This document shows positions 20,752 to 63,212 of a DNA stretch of 64,000 nucleotides, piece by piece. The notes under the pieces are model-generated. The model did not search any database and was not told where the DNA came from. It saw nothing but the letters and a program-made list of their open reading frames with translations. Position 1 is the stretch's first letter. Every line of letters starts with the position of its first letter. The position numbers were made by a program, and so were the translations under genes. Source of the stretch: an uncultured Thermoproteales archaeon. Lineage in GTDB: Archaea; Thermoproteota; Thermoprotei; Thermoproteales; Thermoproteaceae. The stretch spans positions 1 through 64,000 of the forward strand of contig CALJAK010000001.1 in assembly GCA_938027595.1 (NCBI GenBank). The letters run 5' to 3'.

Positions 20752-20782
20752 ATCCGCCAAATGGATTGTATATATAAACTTT

Positions 20783-20838
20783 GGCCGGGGTAACCCGCCA
20801 GGCTCATACTCCCCCACCCAGGGGTGTTGCCTAGGGCA
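20783..20838 (-). other. GC-rich island with its own TATA box, possible small RNA
   Basis: A 56-bp segment rich in G+C between two TATA-like elements: TATATAAAG at about 20857-20865 upstream (minus sense), which would start transcription near 20838, and the eL38 promoter downstream. It can fold into two short hairpins (CCCC/GGGG around 20815-20835 and GGG-TTA-CCC at about 20788-20796). In a hyperthermophile such islands often mark structured RNA. No family recognised; alternatively it is an N-terminal extension of eL38. Confidence 0.3.
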
Positions 20839-20874
20839 TATACATTTATAGCACATCTTTATATACTTAACTCT

Positions 20875-39949: not shown

Positions 39950-42262
39950 ATGTATATGCCTCTCGAACGCATTGTTGAGTTTAAAGTGGGGGCCCCCGTA
40001 GAACTACTGCCAGAGTTGATATACTTCGTGGGGAAGACTGGCGCCGCCATGTTTGAAAATAGACACGAAAAACTACCGAAACCCAGAGACCCCCCACTCT
40101 TACAGATGGCGAAGAAGTTAGACGACCTCCTGAACCAAATCGCGCCGTATGTACAACCGCAGATGGTGAAACTACCGCACACGTCGCTAGAGAGGCAGAT
40201 GGAGGAAGCCATAGAGAAACTGGAGGCGATATATAGAGAGGTGTCTTACTACACTCGCCAACTAGACGAGCTGAGGGTTAGGTTAACCACGGCGAGAGAC
40301 GTGGCTAACGTCAAGGCTAGCTTCATCCCCAAGACCGAAACGTTGGAGGTTTACGTAGCGGTCCCCGGCCGGGCTCAGAGAGAGGCGCTGGAGCTGGCAA
40401 AGTCTCTAAACGCCATAGTTGTACAACAAGACAACGCCCTGCTTATAGCGATAGAGCGACAACGCGCCACACACCTCGTCAACGCGTTGGAGAAAATGGG
40501 CGCCAGAGTCTACACCTACAGAGAAGCGGTTGAAACAGAACCTCCCCACGTCATAGAGGAGAAAATCAGAAACGTCGAGAGAGAACTCCAAGCCACACTC
40601 TCCAAGCACTTAGACACCGTGAATTATGCATACACTTTGAAAAACGCCATGTCGACAATCGTCGAGGTGTTTAACAAATCTGCCACCGACGAGGGGACGG
40701 AGACCGGCAGACTATTCTACTCTTTCGAGAGAGAGTTGGAAAAATTAGGTCAACAAATGGCGAACCTCCAGAAAATCAAGACAGTCCTAGAGGGGCTGGC
40801 GGAGAGGGGGAGCGTGAAACTGCCGCAGGGTTTCAAATTCGTGGTGGATCCAGAAACGCCGATAACTTCGCCGCACGTAATTGAAAAGATAAACGGCGTC
40901 ACTGTGGCTTTGGTAAGGGGAGAGGCGAGGGGGTTGGAGGTGCCTCAGGAGTATCTAGCGGACATAGAGAGGGGAGTGAGACTCGTGGAGGAGGCCATAA
41001 AGACCACATACAGCACGATACAACGACTCAGGAGAGATTACGAGAATTTGGAGAAAGCCTACTCGGAGTATTCGCTATATGGAGACCGAAAGTGGGAGGA
41101 GCACAGAGACGTCGCCAGCGTGATGTTCTACGTGCTAGAGAGAGACGTGTCCAAGGTAGACAACGCACTCGTAGAGTTTGTGCGACACAACACGAGAAAA
41201 ATCGACATAGTCAAGAGAGTTAGGTATAAATACTTCGACAGAGTGCCACCCGAGCGGAGACCCACCCTGGAGAGATACCCCACGCCCATTAGACAATTCA
41301 CAAACGTGACGTACATGTACGGAGTGCCCAACCCCAACGAGATAACGCCAGTGCCACTAGTGGCGTTGATATTTCCCCTATTCTTCGGCTGGATGTACGG
41401 CGATTTGGGACACGGATTTTTACTATTCCTACTGGGGCTCCTCCTCACCAAGAAGCTATACGGCGGTAAGTACAGAGATTGGGGCATAGTGTGGACAGTG
41501 ACTGGCCTAGCCTCGATGTTATTCGGCCTCTTTGTGTACCAAGAGGCCTTCGGCCTCCACTTGAAGGAACTGGGGCTGAAGATGCCCACGCCGCCAGTCC
41601 TACACCTCTTCGGCTACGAGCGGCTAGTGGAGGTGGAGGGAGTCATAGCTTCCATAAGAGCAGCTTTCCTACTGGGGTTCCTCTTGATGTTAATGGCGTT
41701 CTTCGCCAAGTTTGTAAACGTGTGGCTCAAGGGCGAGAGAGACATGGCCATAGGGCTAGTGCTACCGCAAGCGTTTCTCTTCCTATCTCTCTCCATGATA
41801 TTCCTCTCACTCCTCAAAGAGGGGTTAGATTTACACTTCCTCAGTCCCATACTCAACCAACCCTGGCCGTTGATCGCGGCGCTGTCGATCGCTTGGAGCG
41901 TAGCTGGCCTCATGGCCATAAAAGCTAGGTACAGACACCACGAGGAAAAACCCCCAGCCGGCGAGGAGTTCATACTGGGCGTGGTGGAGACCTCCATAGC
42001 GGCCTTCGCCAACATACCCAGCTTCGCGCGGTTGGTAATCCTGATATTGATACACGGCGTGTTGACCAAATTGATAAACAGCGCATCCGCCTCAATCGGC
42101 ATGCCGCTGGGGCTAGTGCCGGCTGTGTTGGGTCACGCCCTAATCGCGGCAGCCGAGGCATTCTTCTCGCTAGTGCAAACACTCCGTCTCACTTTCTACG
42201 AAGTCCTCTCCAAATTCTACGAGGGACGCGGCCGCCTCTTCACGCCAGTGACGCTGCCATAA
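39950..42262 (+). CDS. atpI: A-type ATP synthase subunit I (a subunit)
   Basis: Stator/proton-channel subunit of the archaeal A-type ATP synthase. About 770 residues. The N-terminal half (residues 1-430) is cytoplasmic with long helices (RQMEEAIEKLEAIYREVSYY and others) forming the peripheral hinge. The C-terminal half has about seven membrane helices, beginning with LVALIFPLFFGWMYGDLGHGF; channel arginine region near ALIAAAEAFFSLVQTLRLTFYE. The other atp genes are not in the window. TAATG overlap with the next gene. Confidence 0.94.
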   Translation: MYMPLERIVEFKVGAPVELLPELIYFVGKTGAAMFENRHEKLPKPRDPPLLQMAKKLDDLLNQIAPYVQPQMVKLPHTSLERQMEEAIEKLEAIYREVSYYTRQLDELRVRLTTARDVANVKASFIPKTETLEVYVAVPGRAQREALELAKSLNAIVVQQDNALLIAIERQRATHLVNALEKMGARVYTYREAVETEPPHVIEEKIRNVERELQATLSKHLDTVNYAYTLKNAMSTIVEVFNKSATDEGTETGRLFYSFERELEKLGQQMANLQKIKTVLEGLAERGSVKLPQGFKFVVDPETPITSPHVIEKINGVTVALVRGEARGLEVPQEYLADIERGVRLVEEAIKTTYSTIQRLRRDYENLEKAYSEYSLYGDRKWEEHRDVASVMFYVLERDVSKVDNALVEFVRHNTRKIDIVKRVRYKYFDRVPPERRPTLERYPTPIRQFTNVTYMYGVPNPNEITPVPLVALIFPLFFGWMYGDLGHGFLLFLLGLLLTKKLYGGKYRDWGIVWTVTGLASMLFGLFVYQEAFGLHLKELGLKMPTPPVLHLFGYERLVEVEGVIASIRAAFLLGFLLMLMAFFAKFVNVWLKGERDMAIGLVLPQAFLFLSLSMIFLSLLKEGLDLHFLSPILNQPWPLIAALSIAWSVAGLMAIKARYRHHEEKPPAGEEFILGVVETSIAAFANIPSFARLVILILIHGVLTKLINSASASIGMPLGLVPAVLGHALIAAAEAFFSLVQTLRLTFYEVLSKFYEGRGRLFTPVTLP

Positions 42263-42936
42263 TGGAGATAATCGCCGAGATAACCCCCACCCCCCACAGA
42301 GACCTCTTCCTAAAGAGACTGCAGCTCTTGAGACCACTAGTGGAGAGAGTAGACATCCCAGAATCCCCCGGGGGCAAACCCACCGCCCACTCGCTGGCGG
42401 CCGGCGCGTTGGCGAAACAAACCGGACTAGAGCCCATAGTACACATCAGACTAGTGGACCTCAACAAGACGGCGCTCAAGTCACTACTCGGCGGCGCCAA
42501 ACTGCTAGACGTCAAACACGTAGTGTTGCTCCAGGGCGACCCCCCAGCCGAGGGAAAGCCAGTGAACCAAATCACCACAGAAGAGGCGGTGGCAGAAGCC
42601 AAGAAAATGGGCCTCACAGCCGGCGCATTGCTAAGCCTCAAGAGAGAATACAGACAGAGACTACAGATAGGCGCAGACTTCTACCTAGCGCTACACTTCA
42701 CACACCCAAACCAACTGAAAGACCTACCACCGTCAGTCTACCCCTACCTCCTAGTCAAGACAGAGAAAAACGGGCGGTTGATAGACAGACTAAGACAAGA
42801 GGCAGTCACCCCACAAGAGGCGCTACAGCTAGCGAAGCAACTAACCGAAGTGACCCCCGCCGTCGTTCTCACAGTCCCAGGAGATTTCGACACGCTACAC
42901 AAACTAGCGAGAGAACTCAAAAAACTCCACAGTTGA
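42262..42936 (+). CDS. Methylenetetrahydrofolate reductase-like protein, short form
   Basis: About 224 residues. The start IAEITPTPHRDLFLKRLQLLRPLVERVDIPESPGGKP, GLEPIVHIRLVDLNKTALKSLLGGAKLLDVKHVVLLQGDPP and FYLALHFTHP match the N-terminal two-thirds of the MTHFR barrel; the E-x-T/E motif (AEIT) and GDPP loop are present. Usual length is about 290, so the barrel's last part is missing or shortened. Substrate may be a modified pterin. Start overlaps the atpI stop (TAATG). The 3' end overlaps the Rpp29-like frame by 20 bp, convergent. Confidence 0.75.
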   Translation: MEIIAEITPTPHRDLFLKRLQLLRPLVERVDIPESPGGKPTAHSLAAGALAKQTGLEPIVHIRLVDLNKTALKSLLGGAKLLDVKHVVLLQGDPPAEGKPVNQITTEEAVAEAKKMGLTAGALLSLKREYRQRLQIGADFYLALHFTHPNQLKDLPPSVYPYLLVKTEKNGRLIDRLRQEAVTPQEALQLAKQLTEVTPAVVLTVPGDFDTLHKLARELKKLHS

Positions 42937-43171
42937 AAAGCCTCCTATCTCTATACCCCACAAGCCACCTCCCCCACACCAAAACCCCCACATCCCACAG
43001 AAAAAAGCGACACACAGCCTTAGGCACAGACACCACCCCCACCCCACTCAACAAGAGAAAAGTACCAAACGTCTCCCCCACCACCACCCCCCTAACTCTA
43101 TAACTACAGCCATACGTAGATACCTCCCTACCCAAGAGGTCTAGACACCTAGCGCCCCCCCTCCGCCTCAC
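42917..43171 (-). CDS. rnp1: Candidate RNase P protein subunit Rpp29 (very short)
   Basis: About 84 residues from a GTG at 43171 that overlaps the L29 end by 23 bp. The frame has the aRpp29 Sm-like barrel pattern: LLGREV, then RVRGVVVGETFGTFLLL (G-x-V-V-x-E-T-x-x-T-hydrophobic), VPKAVCRFF (V-P-K-x-x-x-x-F), VLVWGRWLVGYRDRRLF (V-x-G-x-x-L-V-G-x-R-x-x-R). In archaea Rpp29 typically sits directly after L29, as here. It is shorter than the usual 95-130 residues. No other member of the pair could explain these motifs. If right, it matters because Thermoproteaceae RNase P is described as minimal. Confidence 0.65.
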   Translation of the reverse strand: MRRRGGARCLDLLGREVSTYGCSYRVRGVVVGETFGTFLLLSGVGVVSVPKAVCRFFLWDVGVLVWGRWLVGYRDRRLFNCGVF

Positions 43172-43355
43172 GCTCGATAGTCAAAATCCTAGCAATAGCC
43201 CGCCTCACCTCCCTAACCCTACCAGACTTCTCCACAAACCCCCTAGCCCTCTGACTCTCCAACTTCAAAAGCTCAGCCCTAAGTTGATTCAACAAATCAA
43301 GCCTCTCCTCCCGAGACATCTCCCGCAAAGCCCTCAACTTCCTCCCCTCAGACAT
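43149..43355 (-). CDS. rpl29: Ribosomal protein uL29
   Basis: About 68 residues from the ATG at 43355 (MSEGRKLRALREMSREERLD). Coiled helical 50S protein: ELLKLESQRARGFVEKSGRVREVRRAIARILTI is the L29 signature with R-x-I-A-R-I-L-T. The frame remains open upstream to 43469, but those residues are hydrophobic and unrelated to L29. Followed by the Rpp29-like gene. S3, which usually precedes it, is at 62.6 kb. Confidence 0.93.
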   Translation of the reverse strand: MSEGRKLRALREMSREERLDLLNQLRAELLKLESQRARGFVEKSGRVREVRRAIARILTIEREAEGGR

Positions 43356-43481: not shown

Positions 43482-43610
43482 GCCCCCAACCCGGCCACAG
43501 GCGCCGGAGACACGCCCGGACTCATCAGAACCCGGAAGCTAAGGCCGGCGCCGCGCACGGAAGTACTGGGCTCCGAGAGGGCCCGGGAACCCGGCGTGCT
43601 GGGAGGGGGC
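43482..43610 (+). rRNA. rrf: 5S ribosomal RNA
   Basis: About 129 nt. GCCCCC at the 5' end pairs with GGGGGC at the 3' end (helix I). The hallmark loop segment CCCGGACTCATCAGAACCCGG continuing into AAGCTAAG is at about 43516-43544, and helix IV/V sequences with TACTGGG and GAGAGG follow. TATA-like AATTTAAAAAC at about 43453-43463 is at the right distance. Lone 5S genes apart from 16S-23S are the rule in crenarchaea. Ends are approximate by a few bases. Confidence 0.9.
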
Positions 43611-43706: not shown

Positions 43707-44285
43707 TTACTTTCGGAATAAATTCGCTATGTAATCCGCCGCGAGCTCCGCGTGTTCAAACGGCCTACTTTCCACTTTGTTTCTAAAGTCCAAGATGTGG
43801 ACGGTGCTTTCGCTCACAGCCGCCGCGGCAAACGCGAAGTACCTATTCGCTTGTTGATGCTGCTCAATGTCTTCTTCACTCTCAATCTCCCTAAACCTAG
43901 TGGGGTCCTTCCTCCTCCTCTCTAAAATCACTTTGGGGTTGTACTCAATCAACAATATGATATCTGGCTTTAGCCTAGACACAATCCTAGCCGGCAGACC
44001 TGGGTAGAAACCACCGCCGATTTTTATAGAAGCGTGAGTATCCACAATGACATCGCCCGGAATAGAAGCAATACGCTCTGCAGCTTCTTCTTGAATTTTC
44101 CTGTACTCATCAATGGGGATTTTCTTCCTCATCTCATCTCTATTCTCAATGCCGAACTTCTCCTTAGCAATTTCAAACATAAAATCGCCAAAATTCACTA
44201 TCTTCACGTCTTTAACTCTCTCCCTAACATAATTCATAATCGTAGTCTTGCCACTGCCAGCCAACGCCACAACCACAACTCTCAT
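43707..44285 (-). CDS. adkA: Adenylate kinase, archaeal type
   Basis: About 192 residues from the ATG at 44285, with TATA-like GTTTATATT about 26 bp upstream; an open extension to 44396 lies before this promoter and is excluded. P-loop VVVALAGSGKTTIMN at residues 4-17; VNFGDFMFEIAKE; DEMRKKIPIDEYRKIQEEAAERIA; VIVDTHASIKIGGGFYPGLP; ERRRKDPTRFREIESEEDIEQHQQANRYFAFAAA. This is the archaeal trimeric adenylate kinase pattern, unrelated in detail to bacterial Adk. Confidence 0.93.
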   Translation of the reverse strand: MRVVVVALAGSGKTTIMNYVRERVKDVKIVNFGDFMFEIAKEKFGIENRDEMRKKIPIDEYRKIQEEAAERIASIPGDVIVDTHASIKIGGGFYPGLPARIVSRLKPDIILLIEYNPKVILERRRKDPTRFREIESEEDIEQHQQANRYFAFAAAAVSESTVHILDFRNKVESRPFEHAELAADYIANLFRK

Positions 44286-44409
44286 AACCGCCGCAAGCAG
44301 ATTAAATATAAACTTTATTCCCAAAAACAACCAACGCCACAAAAAACGCCGACACAACCCCACCAATTTCGACACGTAAAAACAACCCACCAACACAGAA
44401 CCCCAACGT

Positions 44410-45130: not shown

Positions 45131-45291
45131 CTTTCAATCCTCTTTTTGATATCAAGCTCAACCGCGCTGCCGCTACTAGACCTCCGCGGACACGTATCTT
45201 TCAATCCTCTCTTTGAGATTCTCGTAACACTGTTGAGGAAACCAAGCACTGCAGCCGCGGTAAAGTGCTTTCAATCCCCCTCTTGAGATTC
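45131..45291 (-). CRISPR. CRISPR array 1, three repeats, minus orientation
   Basis: Repeats of 23-24 bp at 45268-45291, 45198-45221 and 45131-45153; in minus sense the middle one starts GAATCTCAAAGAG and ends AGGATTGAAAG. Spacers 45222-45267 (46 bp) and 45154-45197 (44 bp). The terminal repeat (45131) is degenerate (GATATC start), so the leader lies at the 45291 side, facing cas6. The leader-proximal repeat also differs (AAGAGGGGG). Divergence in all but one repeat suggests a small, ageing array. Confidence 0.92.
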
Positions 45292-46687: not shown

Positions 46688-46897
46688 GAATCTCAAAGAG
46701 AGGATTGAAAGGTCATATGATACCGAGCTTAGATGCGGTGAAAGACGGAGTGGGAATCTCAAAGAGAGGATTGAAAGCACACGTATATCGCCGAGTTCAC
46801 ACATTGCCTTTGTAGCGCCTCGAATCCCAAAGAGAGGATTGAAAGTGCTTATCGCTTCTCAACTCACGCTTCAGAATCTCAAGGAGAGGATTGAAAG
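46688..46897 (+). CRISPR. CRISPR array 2, four repeats, plus orientation
   Basis: 24-bp repeats at 46688-46711, 46754-46777, 46822-46845 and 46874-46897, starting GAATCTCAAAGAG and ending AGGATTGAAAG; repeats 3 and 4 have single changes (CCC and AAGGAG). Spacers: 42, 44 and 28 bp; the last is unusually short. Leader at the 46688 side, facing cas6. The same repeat type as array 1, so one Cas6 can serve both. Confidence 0.93.
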
Positions 46898-48539: not shown

Positions 48540-49138
48540 ATCTTTTTCCCACGGCTCTCCATCTCGCCCCCGTACATCGCCAGCTGCTGCCTGCTGACCG
48601 TCTTAAAAGTTCTGGCCGCCGTGAGGGCGTGAGTTCGCGGTGGTGTGTTGGAGTTGCCCGCCGTCGCGCTCGACCCATCACGCCACCGAGTTGACAACGA
48701 TGTTGTTCAACGTAGATGTCCCCAGGCGGGGGGCGGATTTGCGTAAAGAATTTAGGGACCCATGGGGATGTTGGTGTTGTATACGCCCGGCGTAAAGGCG
48801 AGTTTTCAGTTTCCCGTGTGGCTCCGCAGAGTTGACATCTTCGCCTTAGCTACTTCCGACTTTAAAAGTTCTCCGCTGTCTGGGGCTGGCGTGAATCTCT
48901 CCTCGTCTTTTCGCCACGATGCGGTAGAGTTGTGGACGGCAGTTAGACGCCGCCGCGTGGCTCCTCCATGTGACGTGTGTTGACAGACGTGTGAGTTCTC
49001 TCACTCGCGTCGGGCCGACGTTTGCAGCGCCGAAGTTGAGAGTTCTGTGTGGCTGTATGCTGAAATCTGCTGCGCTTTGTCTGTTGTTATTGTTGTGTCG
49101 CGCTGAGAACACGCCGCGTGTTTAACGGTGTCTCTTTT
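48540..49138. other. 599-bp stretch without a credible gene
   Basis: Between the broken transglutaminase-like gene and the broken acetyl-CoA synthetase. I see a bulged hairpin GTTGACAAC/GTTGTTCAAC (48690-48711) and a repeated TTAAAAGTTCT (near 48604 and 48861), but no reading frame with family features and no RNA gene I recognise. Likely remnant DNA. Confidence 0.45.
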
Positions 49139-51050
49139 ATGAAAAGAGATAAATACAGTATGGAGTTGTTTAAAGAGCTTTGGCGTAGTGAAAGAGATAG
49201 TCCCGAGAAGTTTTGGGATAGACGTGCGGAGGAGGCTGTGGTGGATATATATTGGTTTAGGAAATGGGATAGGGTCTTTGAGTGGAGTTTTCCCAAATTT
49301 ACTTGGTTTAGGGGTGGGAAGACTAATGTGGCTTACAACTGTCTAGACTATAAGTTGGAGAGGTTTGCTTCTAAACCTGCTTACATATACGAAAATCCAG
49401 AACTGGGGGTGAGGCGCGTGGTTACATATCGCGAGTTTTATGAAATTGTTAAACAATACGCAGCGGCGCTCCGTGGACTTGGCGTGGGGAGGGGAGATAG
49501 AATTATGCTATATTTGCCGAATTCCATCGAGGCCGCCGCTTTGATATTAGCCGCGGCTAGAATCGGCGCAATTTCTGTCACTGTATTCGCTGGCTTTTCG
49601 CCGAGAGCTGTGGCGGATAGGATTGAACTCACTACGCCCAAGTTGATCTTTACGCAAGACGTCTCTATGCGGAGGGGGAGAGCGGTACCGCTTAAGGAAA
49701 ACGTAGACGCCGCTTTATCTCTAACAAACCACAACGCTAGGGTAGTTGTGAAGAAGACGAAATCCGATGTGGAACTCGGCGAGAGAGATATGACGTTGGA
49801 GGAATTCCTCAAAGAAGGACAGGGGGAAAGCGGTGATTATGTAGAAGTAGACGCTGCGGACCCCCATCTTCATCATGCCCACCTCCGGCACTACTGCAAA
49901 ACCCAAGCCCGTCGTACACGTCTTCGGCGGGTATCAAATATGGAATTACTACGCCGCTAAGTGGGTGTACGGCCTTAATCACAACGACGTTGTTTTCAAC
50001 ACGTCTGACGTTGGGTGGATCGTGGGGCAGAGTTACATCGTCTTTGGTCCATTGTTGGCGGGGGCGACGGCTATATTGTACGACGGAGCTCCGGACTACC
50101 CCAAGCTTGGCGTTTGGTGGGAAGTGGCGTCTAGAAACAAAGCCACGTTGAAATGGACGTCCCCCACCGGCGCGCGTATTATGAGGAAAATCGGCGCCGA
50201 GGCGGCTAGAGAACACGACCTTTCTACAGTGAAGCGGGTGGTTTGCGCCGGAGAGGTGTTGAACCCAGAAGTTTGGCAGTGGCTATATGACCTCTTTGAT
50301 AGAGAGATTCCGGTGATAGACCACATGTGGCAGACGGAGACGACTGGCCCCATATTTGGTTATCCATACGGCATGTTGGGAGACGAAGTAAAGAAATATA
50401 TAAAGCCAGGCTCCGCCGGCCTCCCCCTACCGGGGGTGGAGCCGGTGATATTAGACGAGGGGGGCAGAGAGTTGGGCCCGGGCGAAAAGGGCGTGTTACA
50501 CCTAAGGCGCCCCTTCCCCGGCCTCACGCCAACTCTGTGGGATAGTTTCGAGAGATATGTACAATCCTACTGGGCTCGGGGGATGTACAACACGGGCGAT
50601 TCGGCATATATAGACCAAGACGGTTACGTTTGGTTCGCCGGCAGGGCAGATGAAGTGTTAAAAATCGCTGGGCATAGAATAGGCACTATAGAGATAGAAA
50701 ACGCCTTAGTTAGCCACCCCGCTGTGGCTGAAGCTGGAGTTTGTGGAGTACCCGACGAAATCCGCGGCGAAGTAATCGCGGCTTTTGTAGTACTCAAACC
50801 TGGACACGCGCCGAGTGAACAACTCAAGAAAGAGTTGATAGAACACGTGAGAAAGACTTTCGGCCCCATAGCAGTTTTCAAAGACATACAATTCGTCAAC
50901 ATGCTCCCCAAGACTAGAAGTGGCAAAATAATGAGGAGAGTTATGAAGAGGCTATTCCTGGGACAAGAATTAGGCGATCTCTCCACGCTGGAGGAAGAAG
51001 CTTCAATAGAAGAAATAAGACAAGCAGTAGAGAAGATAAAAATCAGTTGA
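49139..51050 (+). pseudogene. acs: Acetyl-CoA synthetase-type AMP-forming ligase with a frameshift
   Basis: Activates acetate or another short acid to its CoA ester. The first part (ATG 49139) runs RDSPEKFWDRRAEEAVVDIYW, NVAYNCLDYKLERFASKPAYIYE, VTYREFYEIVKQYAAALRGLGV up to VEVDAADP. There the frame breaks at a run of five C at 49861-49865; removing one C joins it to IFIMPTSGTTAKPKPVVHVFGGY, the ATP motif (usual TSGTTGKPKG). The second part is complete: WQTETTGP, YNTGDSAYIDQDGYVWFAGRADEVLKIAGHRIG and the catalytic Lys in PKTRSGKIMRR. Real mutation, phase-variable run or sequencing error are all possible. Confidence 0.88.
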
Positions 51051-62573: not shown

Positions 62574-63212
62574 GTGTCGCAGAGGAGGCTGCCGATATAC
62601 AAGAAAATCGTTGAGGAAAACATGAAGAAGTGGGTAATTAGAGAATTTCTAGAGTACAAACTGAGCAAATACGGCTATATAGATTCAGAAATCTTAAAGA
62701 CCCCCCTGGGCACGCGCATTGTCATATACGCGGAGAGACCCTCTAGAATTATCGGTAGGAAGGGGGCAATTGTGAAGGAGGTGAGTCAAATACTCACCAC
62801 GAAGTTGGGAGTGGAGAACCCACAGATAGACGTGATTGACGTCTCCAAGATAGAAGCGCCGGAGATGTTCCCCAAAGTGGTGGCTTATCGCATCGCCAAT
62901 GCCATGGCTAAGGGAGTGCGATTCCGGCGGGTGATGTTCGTGGCGGTGAGGCAACTAGCCGAGGCGGGGGCTAAGGGTTTTGAAATTGTAGTCAGTGGCA
63001 AGTTGGCGACGGAGAGGGCGAAGTTTGAAAAATTGACAGTGGGCAAGTTGTACAAGAATGGACACGACGCCAAGAACAGAGTTAGGCGCGCGGTGACGCA
63101 TGTGTTACTCAAGCCGGGCATATACGGCGTAGAGATCAGAATCACCCCTGGCACGCTCCAGTATTCAGACGAGTTTAAAGTGAAGCCACCCCTCAAGACG
63201 GAGTCCGCTTGA
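62574..63212 (+). CDS. rps3: Ribosomal protein uS3
   Basis: 30S head protein at the mRNA entry. About 212 residues, GTG start with TATA-like ATTTATATAG about 26 bp upstream. N-terminal KH domain: IVIYAERPSRIIGRKGAIVKEVSQIL (GxxG loop IIGRKG). C-terminal part: FRRVMFVAVRQLAEAGAKGFEIVVSGKLATERAK and GIYGVEIRITP. The stop overlaps the RNase H start. L22 usually precedes S3, but here lies on the opposite strand 370 bp away. Confidence 0.96.
   Translation: MSQRRLPIYKKIVEENMKKWVIREFLEYKLSKYGYIDSEILKTPLGTRIVIYAERPSRIIGRKGAIVKEVSQILTTKLGVENPQIDVIDVSKIEAPEMFPKVVAYRIANAMAKGVRFRRVMFVAVRQLAEAGAKGFEIVVSGKLATERAKFEKLTVGKLYKNGHDAKNRVRRAVTHVLLKPGIYGVEIRITPGTLQYSDEFKVKPPLKTESA

What the first reader, a model, noticed from the sequence alone, without database searches (positions are those of the whole stretch)
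42917..43171. Very short Rpp29 in the L29 operon of a lineage with minimal RNase P
The frame behind L29 has the Rpp29 barrel motifs (VVVGETFGTF, VPKAVCRFF, WLVGYRDRR) and the position that Rpp29 has in other archaea. Thermoproteaceae RNase P RNA is described as lacking the specificity domain that Rpp29 and Rpp21 contact, and as I recall these proteins were hard to find there. A short, diverged Rpp29 would change that picture or point to a new partner.
Basis: partly seen in the sequence, partly recalled or inferred. Interest (0 to 1): 0.75.

Follow-up and report, generated by a model that had tools for sequence, protein, structure and literature searches.

The report
Trimmed Rpp29 surviving in minimal RNase P
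A small, diverged gene next to ribosomal protein L29 in a Pyrobaculum-like archaeon is a genuine version of the RNase P protein Rpp29, kept by selection although its usual partner Rpp21 and the RNA domain that the pair binds have been lost, so it can show what this protein does on its own in the smallest known RNA-based RNase P.

Summary
The minus-strand ORF 42917-43171 (84 aa) directly behind L29 is a real gene. It is found in 18 of 19 Thermoproteaceae genomes, sits next to L29 in all 18, and is under purifying selection (pN/pS 0.26; L29 0.20). It is an Rpp29 orthologue. The Thermoproteaceae profile matches solved Rpp29 structures (2ki7, E=1.9e-7) and canonical Rpp29 of neighbouring orders (hhalign E=6e-12; controls 0.03 or worse). 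The window protein alone scores below the Pfam cut-off, but close relatives pass, so Rpp29 in this lineage was already partly detectable. "Very short" is overstated: 84 aa against about 95. The context is the interesting part. All 19 genomes carry the type-T RNase P RNA without a specificity domain. Rpp21 is absent from all 44 Thermoproteaceae and sister-family genomes but present in all 17 outgroups. Pop5 and Rpp30 persist, highly diverged. Rpp29 has lost the canonical N-terminal segment, Rpp21 salt-bridge residues and its C-terminal tail; Rpp30 has lost the tail that docks on Rpp29. The barrel core and proposed RNA-contact residues remain. Best reading: a stripped-down Rpp29 that still serves type-T RNase P by direct RNA contact. 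New variant of a known kind; function untested here.

The parts
42917..43171 (-). Rpp29 (RNase P subunit p29) orthologue, 84 aa, GTG start; basic (13 K/R, 5 D/E)
43149..43355 (-). Ribosomal protein L29 (68 aa from MSEGRK), upstream in the same transcription direction, overlapping rpp29 by 23 nt
   Evidence: Pfam PF00831 E=1.5e-15, TIGR00012 E=4.5e-16
43070..43090 (-). GX4ET motif (G28-VVVG-E33-T34), matching Pfu RPP29 G68/E73/T74
   Evidence: E invariant in 18/18 Thermoproteaceae
43004..43021 (-). K51...F56, matching Pfu RPP29 K91/F96 (salt-bridge partner of E33; proposed RNA contact)
43106..43108 (-). Cys22, present in 36/36 Rpp29 of the Rpp21-less families and 0/17 outgroup Rpp29
43010..43012 (-). 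Cys54, present in 36/36 of the Rpp21-less families and 5/17 outgroups
43145..43147 (-). Cys9, present in 18/18 Thermoproteaceae Rpp29, 0/18 sister family, 0/17 outgroups; it lies upstream of the next in-frame start (TTG), so it supports translation from the GTG at 43171
42262..42936 (+). Convergent neighbour (224 aa; name methylenetetrahydrofolate-reductase-like from memory, not tested), overlapping the rpp29 3' end by 20 nt; the same neighbour lies there in P. aerophilum, WP30 and T. tenax. Not part of RNase P, marks the conserved locus

Best explanation
The ORF is the Rpp29 orthologue of a Thermoproteaceae archaeon (genus Pyrobaculum), translated from the L29 ribosomal-protein operon. It most likely still serves the type-T RNase P, but in stripped-down form. 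Rpp21 and the RNA specificity domain were lost before the two Rpp21-less families split. Rpp29 lost the canonical N-terminal segment, two of its three reported Rpp21-contact side chains and its C-terminal tail, while Rpp30 lost the tail strand that packs on Rpp29. What selection keeps is the barrel and the residues proposed to touch RNA (G28, E33, T34, K51, F56). The inferred role is direct contact with the pre-tRNA and/or the P1-P9 end of the catalytic RNA, beside Pop5-Rpp30, adding substrate affinity without Rpp21. Shown: gene, homology, selection, absence of Rpp21 and S domain, absence of both tails, retained core. Inferred: membership in the holoenzyme, the RNA-contact role and the order of the losses.
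For: Homology: the Thermoproteaceae profile finds only Rpp29 chains in the PDB, apart from one uncharacterised archaeal entry (AF1917, E=0.023): 2ki7 E=1.9e-7, 6k0a 5.1e-7, 1v76 3e-4, human p29 0.016. hhalign against Rpp29 of neighbouring orders gives E=6e-12, against 0.03 or worse for 50 column shuffles and 0.4-0.7 for Rpp21, Pop5 and Rpp30. The profile finds one place in each of 122 of 300 genomes of the phylum, and those compared coincide with the PF01868 place. Synteny S3-L29-Rpp29. Selection. Type-T RNA in the same genome, 182.5 bits. Rpp21 absent. Own Rpp30 and Pop5 genes, whose relatives are in the PDB as 10cw/10cx/10cy. Residue table: E73, K91, F96 and G68 kept 18/18; H46 lost 17/18; D72 to G 18/18; E47 to D 18/18. 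Rpp30 tail absent in 9/9 examined.
Against: No expression, binding or activity data. The window protein alone is below the Pfam cut-off (14.6 of 27 bits). The loss of both Rpp29-Rpp30 docking tails leaves no shown route into the holoenzyme. The AlphaFold model is poor (pLDDT 52), and its best PDB match, Rpp29 of A. fulgidus, is not significant (E=0.69). No Pyrobaculum Rpp29 chain was found in the PDB although Pop5 and Rpp30 of this type are there.
Confidence: 0.8

Rival explanations
1. Rpp29 has left RNase P and now works with a new partner (ribosome assembly, C/D or H/ACA sRNP, another RNA), with no role in tRNA 5' processing.
For: All three known docking partners are altered: Rpp21 absent, S domain absent, Rpp30 tail absent. 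The gene stays coupled to ribosomal protein genes. New conserved cysteines appear.
Against: The residues proposed to contact RNase P RNA or pre-tRNA stay conserved. L29 linkage is ancestral and shared with canonical Rpp29, so it says nothing about a new role. Type-T RNA, Pop5 and Rpp30 are all retained.
Confidence: 0.12
2. Rpp21 is present but has diverged beyond recognition, so the system is a canonical five-protein RNase P with a disguised Rpp21.
For: Pop5 and Rpp30 in this lineage also mostly escape Pfam, so escape from detection is plausible in principle; E47 is kept as D in all 18.
Against: A profile of 12 neighbouring-order Rpp21 proteins finds Rpp21 in 17/17 outgroups at E<=3.1e-32 and nothing in any of 19 Thermoproteaceae at E<=0.05. 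The S domain that Rpp21 binds is gone. H46 and D72 are lost. The literature also reports RPP21 missing (PMC4919917).
Confidence: 0.05
3. A decaying remnant or spurious ORF.
For: The window's pN is somewhat higher than L29's (0.24 against 0.20), and a few motif positions are unusual (FGT for YNT).
Against: Open in 18/18 Thermoproteaceae genomes where found; pN/pS 0.26 and third-position bias; invariant residues.
Confidence: 0.02

Closest known systems
Archaeal Rpp29 (Pfam PF01868; PDB 2ki7, 6k0a, 1v76, 1ts9)
   Same: Barrel with GX4ET and K...F motifs; position behind L29; basic; invariant E-K pair
   Different: Lacks the N-terminal ITPRN..H segment (only the ELIG part survives, as DLLG), H46 and D72 that contact Rpp21, and the C-terminal RLKK..RRW tail; carries four conserved cysteines
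Type-T (also called type-P) minimal RNase P of Thermoproteaceae (Lai et al. 2010, known here through citing papers PMC4919917, PMC7191817, PMC6565675)
   Same: The same genome carries the RNaseP-T RNA (RF02357, 182.5 bits); no Rpp21
   Different: Open papers describe the RNA and the missing RPP21; the state and role of Rpp29 are not described in the papers I could read
Rpp29 of the sister family f2 (Caldivirga and relatives)
   Same: Also without Rpp21 and with type-T RNA; shares C22 and C54
   Different: Lost the DLLG segment as well; in the Caldivirga-like group the gene is no longer next to L29
Pyrobaculum-type Pop5 and Rpp30 (PDB 10cw, 10cx, 10cy)
   Same: Same minimal system; the 10cw Rpp30 sequence equals an ORF of one Pyrobaculum genome searched here
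   Different: Covers Pop5 and Rpp30 only; no Rpp29 chain found

Membership tests
Rpp29 / RNase P p29 | Profile-level homology to Rpp29 over the barrel | tested here: met
   hmmsearch of A1 against PDB; hhalign E=6e-12 with shuffle controls
Rpp29 / RNase P p29 | GX4ET and K(X4)F motifs and core glycines | tested here: met
   G68 18/18, E73 18/18, T74 T or S 18/18, K91 18/18, F96 18/18, G110 18/18
Rpp29 / RNase P p29 | Pfam PF01868 gathering score reached (a detection threshold, not a biological feature) | tested here: inconclusive
   Window protein 14.6 of 27 bits; orthologues in three Pyrobaculum genomes reach it (G007 31.7, G001 27.5, G008 with its neighbours 27.1); 16/16 family members hit it at E<=1
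Rpp29 / RNase P p29 | Ancestral locus behind L29 in the ribosomal protein operon | tested here: met
   L29 adjacent in 47/53 loci, 18/18 Thermoproteaceae; S3-L29-Rpp29 in WP30
Rpp29 / RNase P p29 | Sm/SH3-like barrel fold | tested here: inconclusive
   AlphaFold model pLDDT 52; first Foldseek hits are Rpp29 but E=0.69
Rpp29 / RNase P p29 | Subunit of RNase P, binds RNase P RNA or pre-tRNA | not testable with these tools
   needs biochemistry
Canonical archaeal five-protein RNase P | Rpp21 partner of Rpp29 | tested here: not met
   No Rpp21 in 19/19 Thermoproteaceae or, credibly, in 25/25 sister-family genomes; 17/17 outgroups have it
Canonical archaeal five-protein RNase P | RNA specificity domain | tested here: not met
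   RNaseP-T (truncated form) match over model positions 1-208 of 208
Canonical archaeal five-protein RNase P | Rpp30 C-terminal tail strand docking on Rpp29 | tested here: not met
   Absent in 9/9 Thermoproteaceae and sister-family Rpp30 examined, present in 11/15 outgroups
Type-T minimal RNase P | RF02357 RNA, Pop5, Rpp30 in the genome | tested here: met

The most novel reading that the evidence does not exclude
Rpp29 in Thermoproteaceae works without any of its known docking partners (Rpp21, the RNA S domain, the Rpp30 tail): either it binds RNA directly as a solo subunit of the smallest RNA-based RNase P, or it has been recruited to a different ribonucleoprotein. The newly conserved cysteines may serve as a replacement stabiliser (disulfide or metal site).
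Probability: 0.3. Interest if true: 0.75.

Novelty: new variant of a known kind. Interest (0 to 1): 0.5.

Why it matters
In the archaeal RNase P reconstitutions described in the papers read, Rpp29 acts as half of an Rpp21-Rpp29 pair bound to the specificity domain. A lineage that discarded Rpp21 and that domain but keeps Rpp29 under purifying selection is a natural separation-of-function experiment. It makes directly testable what Rpp29 contributes on its own, and which contacts are the oldest. It also completes the expected parts list (RNA, Pop5, Rpp30, Rpp29, perhaps L7Ae) for reconstituting the minimal enzyme.

Tried and rejected
Pfam, NCBIfam and phmmer on the single sequence gave only weak hits, so the case rests on family profiles. 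The genome-contig scan found a single relative. The PF01868 hit in another contig of the own genome has two stops and E=0.01, and was rejected as chance. The PF04032 hit in G001 (63 aa, E=0.03) was rejected as Rpp21: it did not recur with the stronger profile A5. Weak A5 hits in the sister family lie mostly in ORFs of about 260 aa and look like unrelated zinc ribbons. Lai et al. 2010 and Chan et al. 2012 are not held, so what they say about Rpp29 could not be checked.

Full report
What is there. The minus-strand ORF 42917-43171 encodes 84 aa from a GTG start. It overlaps the L29 stop codon (L29: 43149-43355) by 23 nt and the end of a convergent 224-aa gene by 20 nt. Cys9, invariant in the family, lies upstream of the next in-frame start (TTG), which supports the GTG at 43171.

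Is it a gene? A protein search of 61 genomes found orthologues in every other Pyrobaculum genome (10 of 10, 63-72% identity) and in 7 of 8 other Thermoproteaceae genomes (38-54%); the one missing is 73% complete. In 10 Pyrobaculum genomes the pairwise pN/pS is 0.26 for this frame and 0.20 for L29. Reading the same DNA in the two shifted sense frames gives 1.17 and 1.92. Differences per codon position are 0.26, 0.16 and 0.60. Synonymous sites are near saturation (pS 0.78), so the ratios are rough.

Is it Rpp29? The window sequence alone reaches only 14.6 bits in PF01868 (cut-off 27) and E=0.12 with 2ki7. The Thermoproteaceae family, in contrast, is unambiguous. Its profile finds 2ki7 (1.9e-7), 6k0a (5.1e-7), 1v76, 2zae, 1oqk, 1ts9 and human p29; the only other entry up to E=10 is an uncharacterised archaeal protein, AF1917, at 0.023. 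hhalign with Rpp29 of neighbouring orders gives E=6e-12, while 50 column shuffles give at best 0.03, and Rpp21, Pop5 and Rpp30 alignments give 0.4-0.7. The profile rings in 122 of 300 genomes across the phylum, one place each; the places that I compared coincide with PF01868 hits.

Locus. L29 is directly upstream in 18/18 Thermoproteaceae, 12/18 sister-family and 17/17 outgroup loci. Pyrobaculum sp. WP30 shows S3-L29-Rpp29, and P. aerophilum and T. tenax have S3 just upstream of the pair and the same convergent neighbour downstream. This is the ancestral archaeal Rpp29 position described in PMC4919917. In the window itself S3 has moved to about 62577-63212 on the plus strand.

The RNase P of this genome. 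The type-T RNA is present (contig C6 30302-30509, 182.5 bits, model positions 1-208 of 208); all 19 Thermoproteaceae and 24 of 25 sister-family genomes have it above the cut-off. Rpp21 is absent: PF04032 gives nothing over its cut-off in 44 genomes, and a custom profile of 12 outgroup Rpp21 proteins finds Rpp21 in 17/17 outgroups (E<=3.1e-32) and nothing in the 19 Thermoproteaceae. Rpp30 and Pop5 are present but mostly below Pfam detection. They sit together beside the L15e gene (own genome C1 about 106.6-107.4 kb, L081 1119-1929; the L15e name is from memory). Their profiles match PDB 10cw, 10cx and 10cy, named Rpp30 and Pop5. The 10cw sequence is identical over the aligned 175 residues to the ORF of genome G009, whose type-T RNA coordinates match P. 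neutrophilum in the table of PMC7191817.

What has been trimmed. In Pfu RPP29, H46, E47 and D72 form salt bridges with RPP21 (PMC4919917). In Thermoproteaceae H46 is lost in 17/18, D72 is Gly in 18/18 and E47 is Asp in 18/18. The residues held responsible for the barrel and RNA contact (G68, E73, T74, K91, F96) are kept in 18/18, T74 as T or S. The N-terminal ITPRN..H segment and the C-terminal RLKK..RRW tail are gone. In M. jannaschii RNase P the Rpp30 C-terminal tail forms an edge strand of the Rpp29 barrel, and the Rpp29 tail enters an Rpp30 groove (PMC6565675). The Rpp30 tail is absent in 4/4 Thermoproteaceae and 5/5 sister-family proteins examined, and in the four outgroup proteins from families f6 and f8, whose Rpp29 also lacks its C-terminal tail; the other 11 of 15 outgroups have it. 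The two tails therefore look as if they were lost together, more than once. New conserved cysteines appear: C22 and C54 in 36/36 proteins of the two Rpp21-less families (outgroups 0/17 and 5/17), and C9 in 18/18 Thermoproteaceae. All 18 also have a Cys near the C-terminus, aligned at C81 in 13.

Mechanism. The most likely reading is that Rpp29 remains a type-T RNase P protein that contacts RNA directly. In M. jannaschii, Rpp30, Rpp29 and Rpp21 make a continuous basic surface on the tRNA, and the Rpp29-Rpp21-L7Ae trimer touches the ends of P1 and P9. With Rpp21 and the S domain gone, the tRNA and P1-side contacts are what remains for Rpp29. This last step is inference. The loss of all known docking features also leaves room for recruitment to another complex.

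Novelty. Homology to Rpp29 is not new as a kind. The combination of retained Rpp29 with loss of Rpp21, of the S domain and of both tail exchanges was not described in the papers I could read. Lai et al. 2010, which likely discusses the protein inventory, was not available. The 2016 review cites it only for absence of RPP21.

Noticed in passing
window 62577-63212 (+) and 43149-43355 (-): The S3 gene lies about 19 kb from L29-Rpp29 and on the other strand, while in WP30, P. aerophilum and T. tenax S3 is just upstream of the pair; a rearrangement seems to have split the operon in this genome. The matching frame of S3 was reported with one TGA.
   Followed up: partly
window 43487-43607 (+): 5S rRNA gene (Rfam 56.3 bits) directly upstream of L29 on the opposite strand, followed by an adenylate-kinase-like gene at 43707-44396 (-).
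   Followed up: no
Rpp29 alignment, window residues 22 and 54 (43106-43108, 43010-43012): Two cysteines conserved in all 36 Rpp29 of the two Rpp21-less families; possible disulfide or metal site replacing lost contacts.
   Followed up: partly
L100, L106, L110, L111 (Rpp30 C-termini) and L013-L015, L025, L028 (Rpp29 C-termini): Outgroup families f6 and f8 lack the Rpp30 tail and also the Rpp29 C-terminal tail although they keep Rpp21: apparent coupled loss of the Rpp29-Rpp30 tail exchange.
   Followed up: partly
window 49118-49960 and 49875-51050 (+): An acyl-CoA-synthetase-like gene appears split into two overlapping ORFs, as by a frameshift (name by inspection only).
   Followed up: no
window 45198-45221 (+), 46688-46711 (-), 46754-46777 (-): CRISPR-DR45 repeat matches on both strands.
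   Followed up: no
window 20780-20840 (-): Pyrobaculum H/ACA-like sRNA PyrR205 (84.7 bits).
   Followed up: no
G006:C1:1608078-1608221 (L078): A second weak PF01868 hit (E=0.0024, 87-aa frame) in one Pyrobaculum genome; not examined.
   Followed up: no
own genome G000: The assembly is only 1.24 Mb at 96.5% estimated completeness, while the nearly complete Pyrobaculum genomes searched have 1.8-2.5 Mb; possibly a reduced genome.
   Followed up: no
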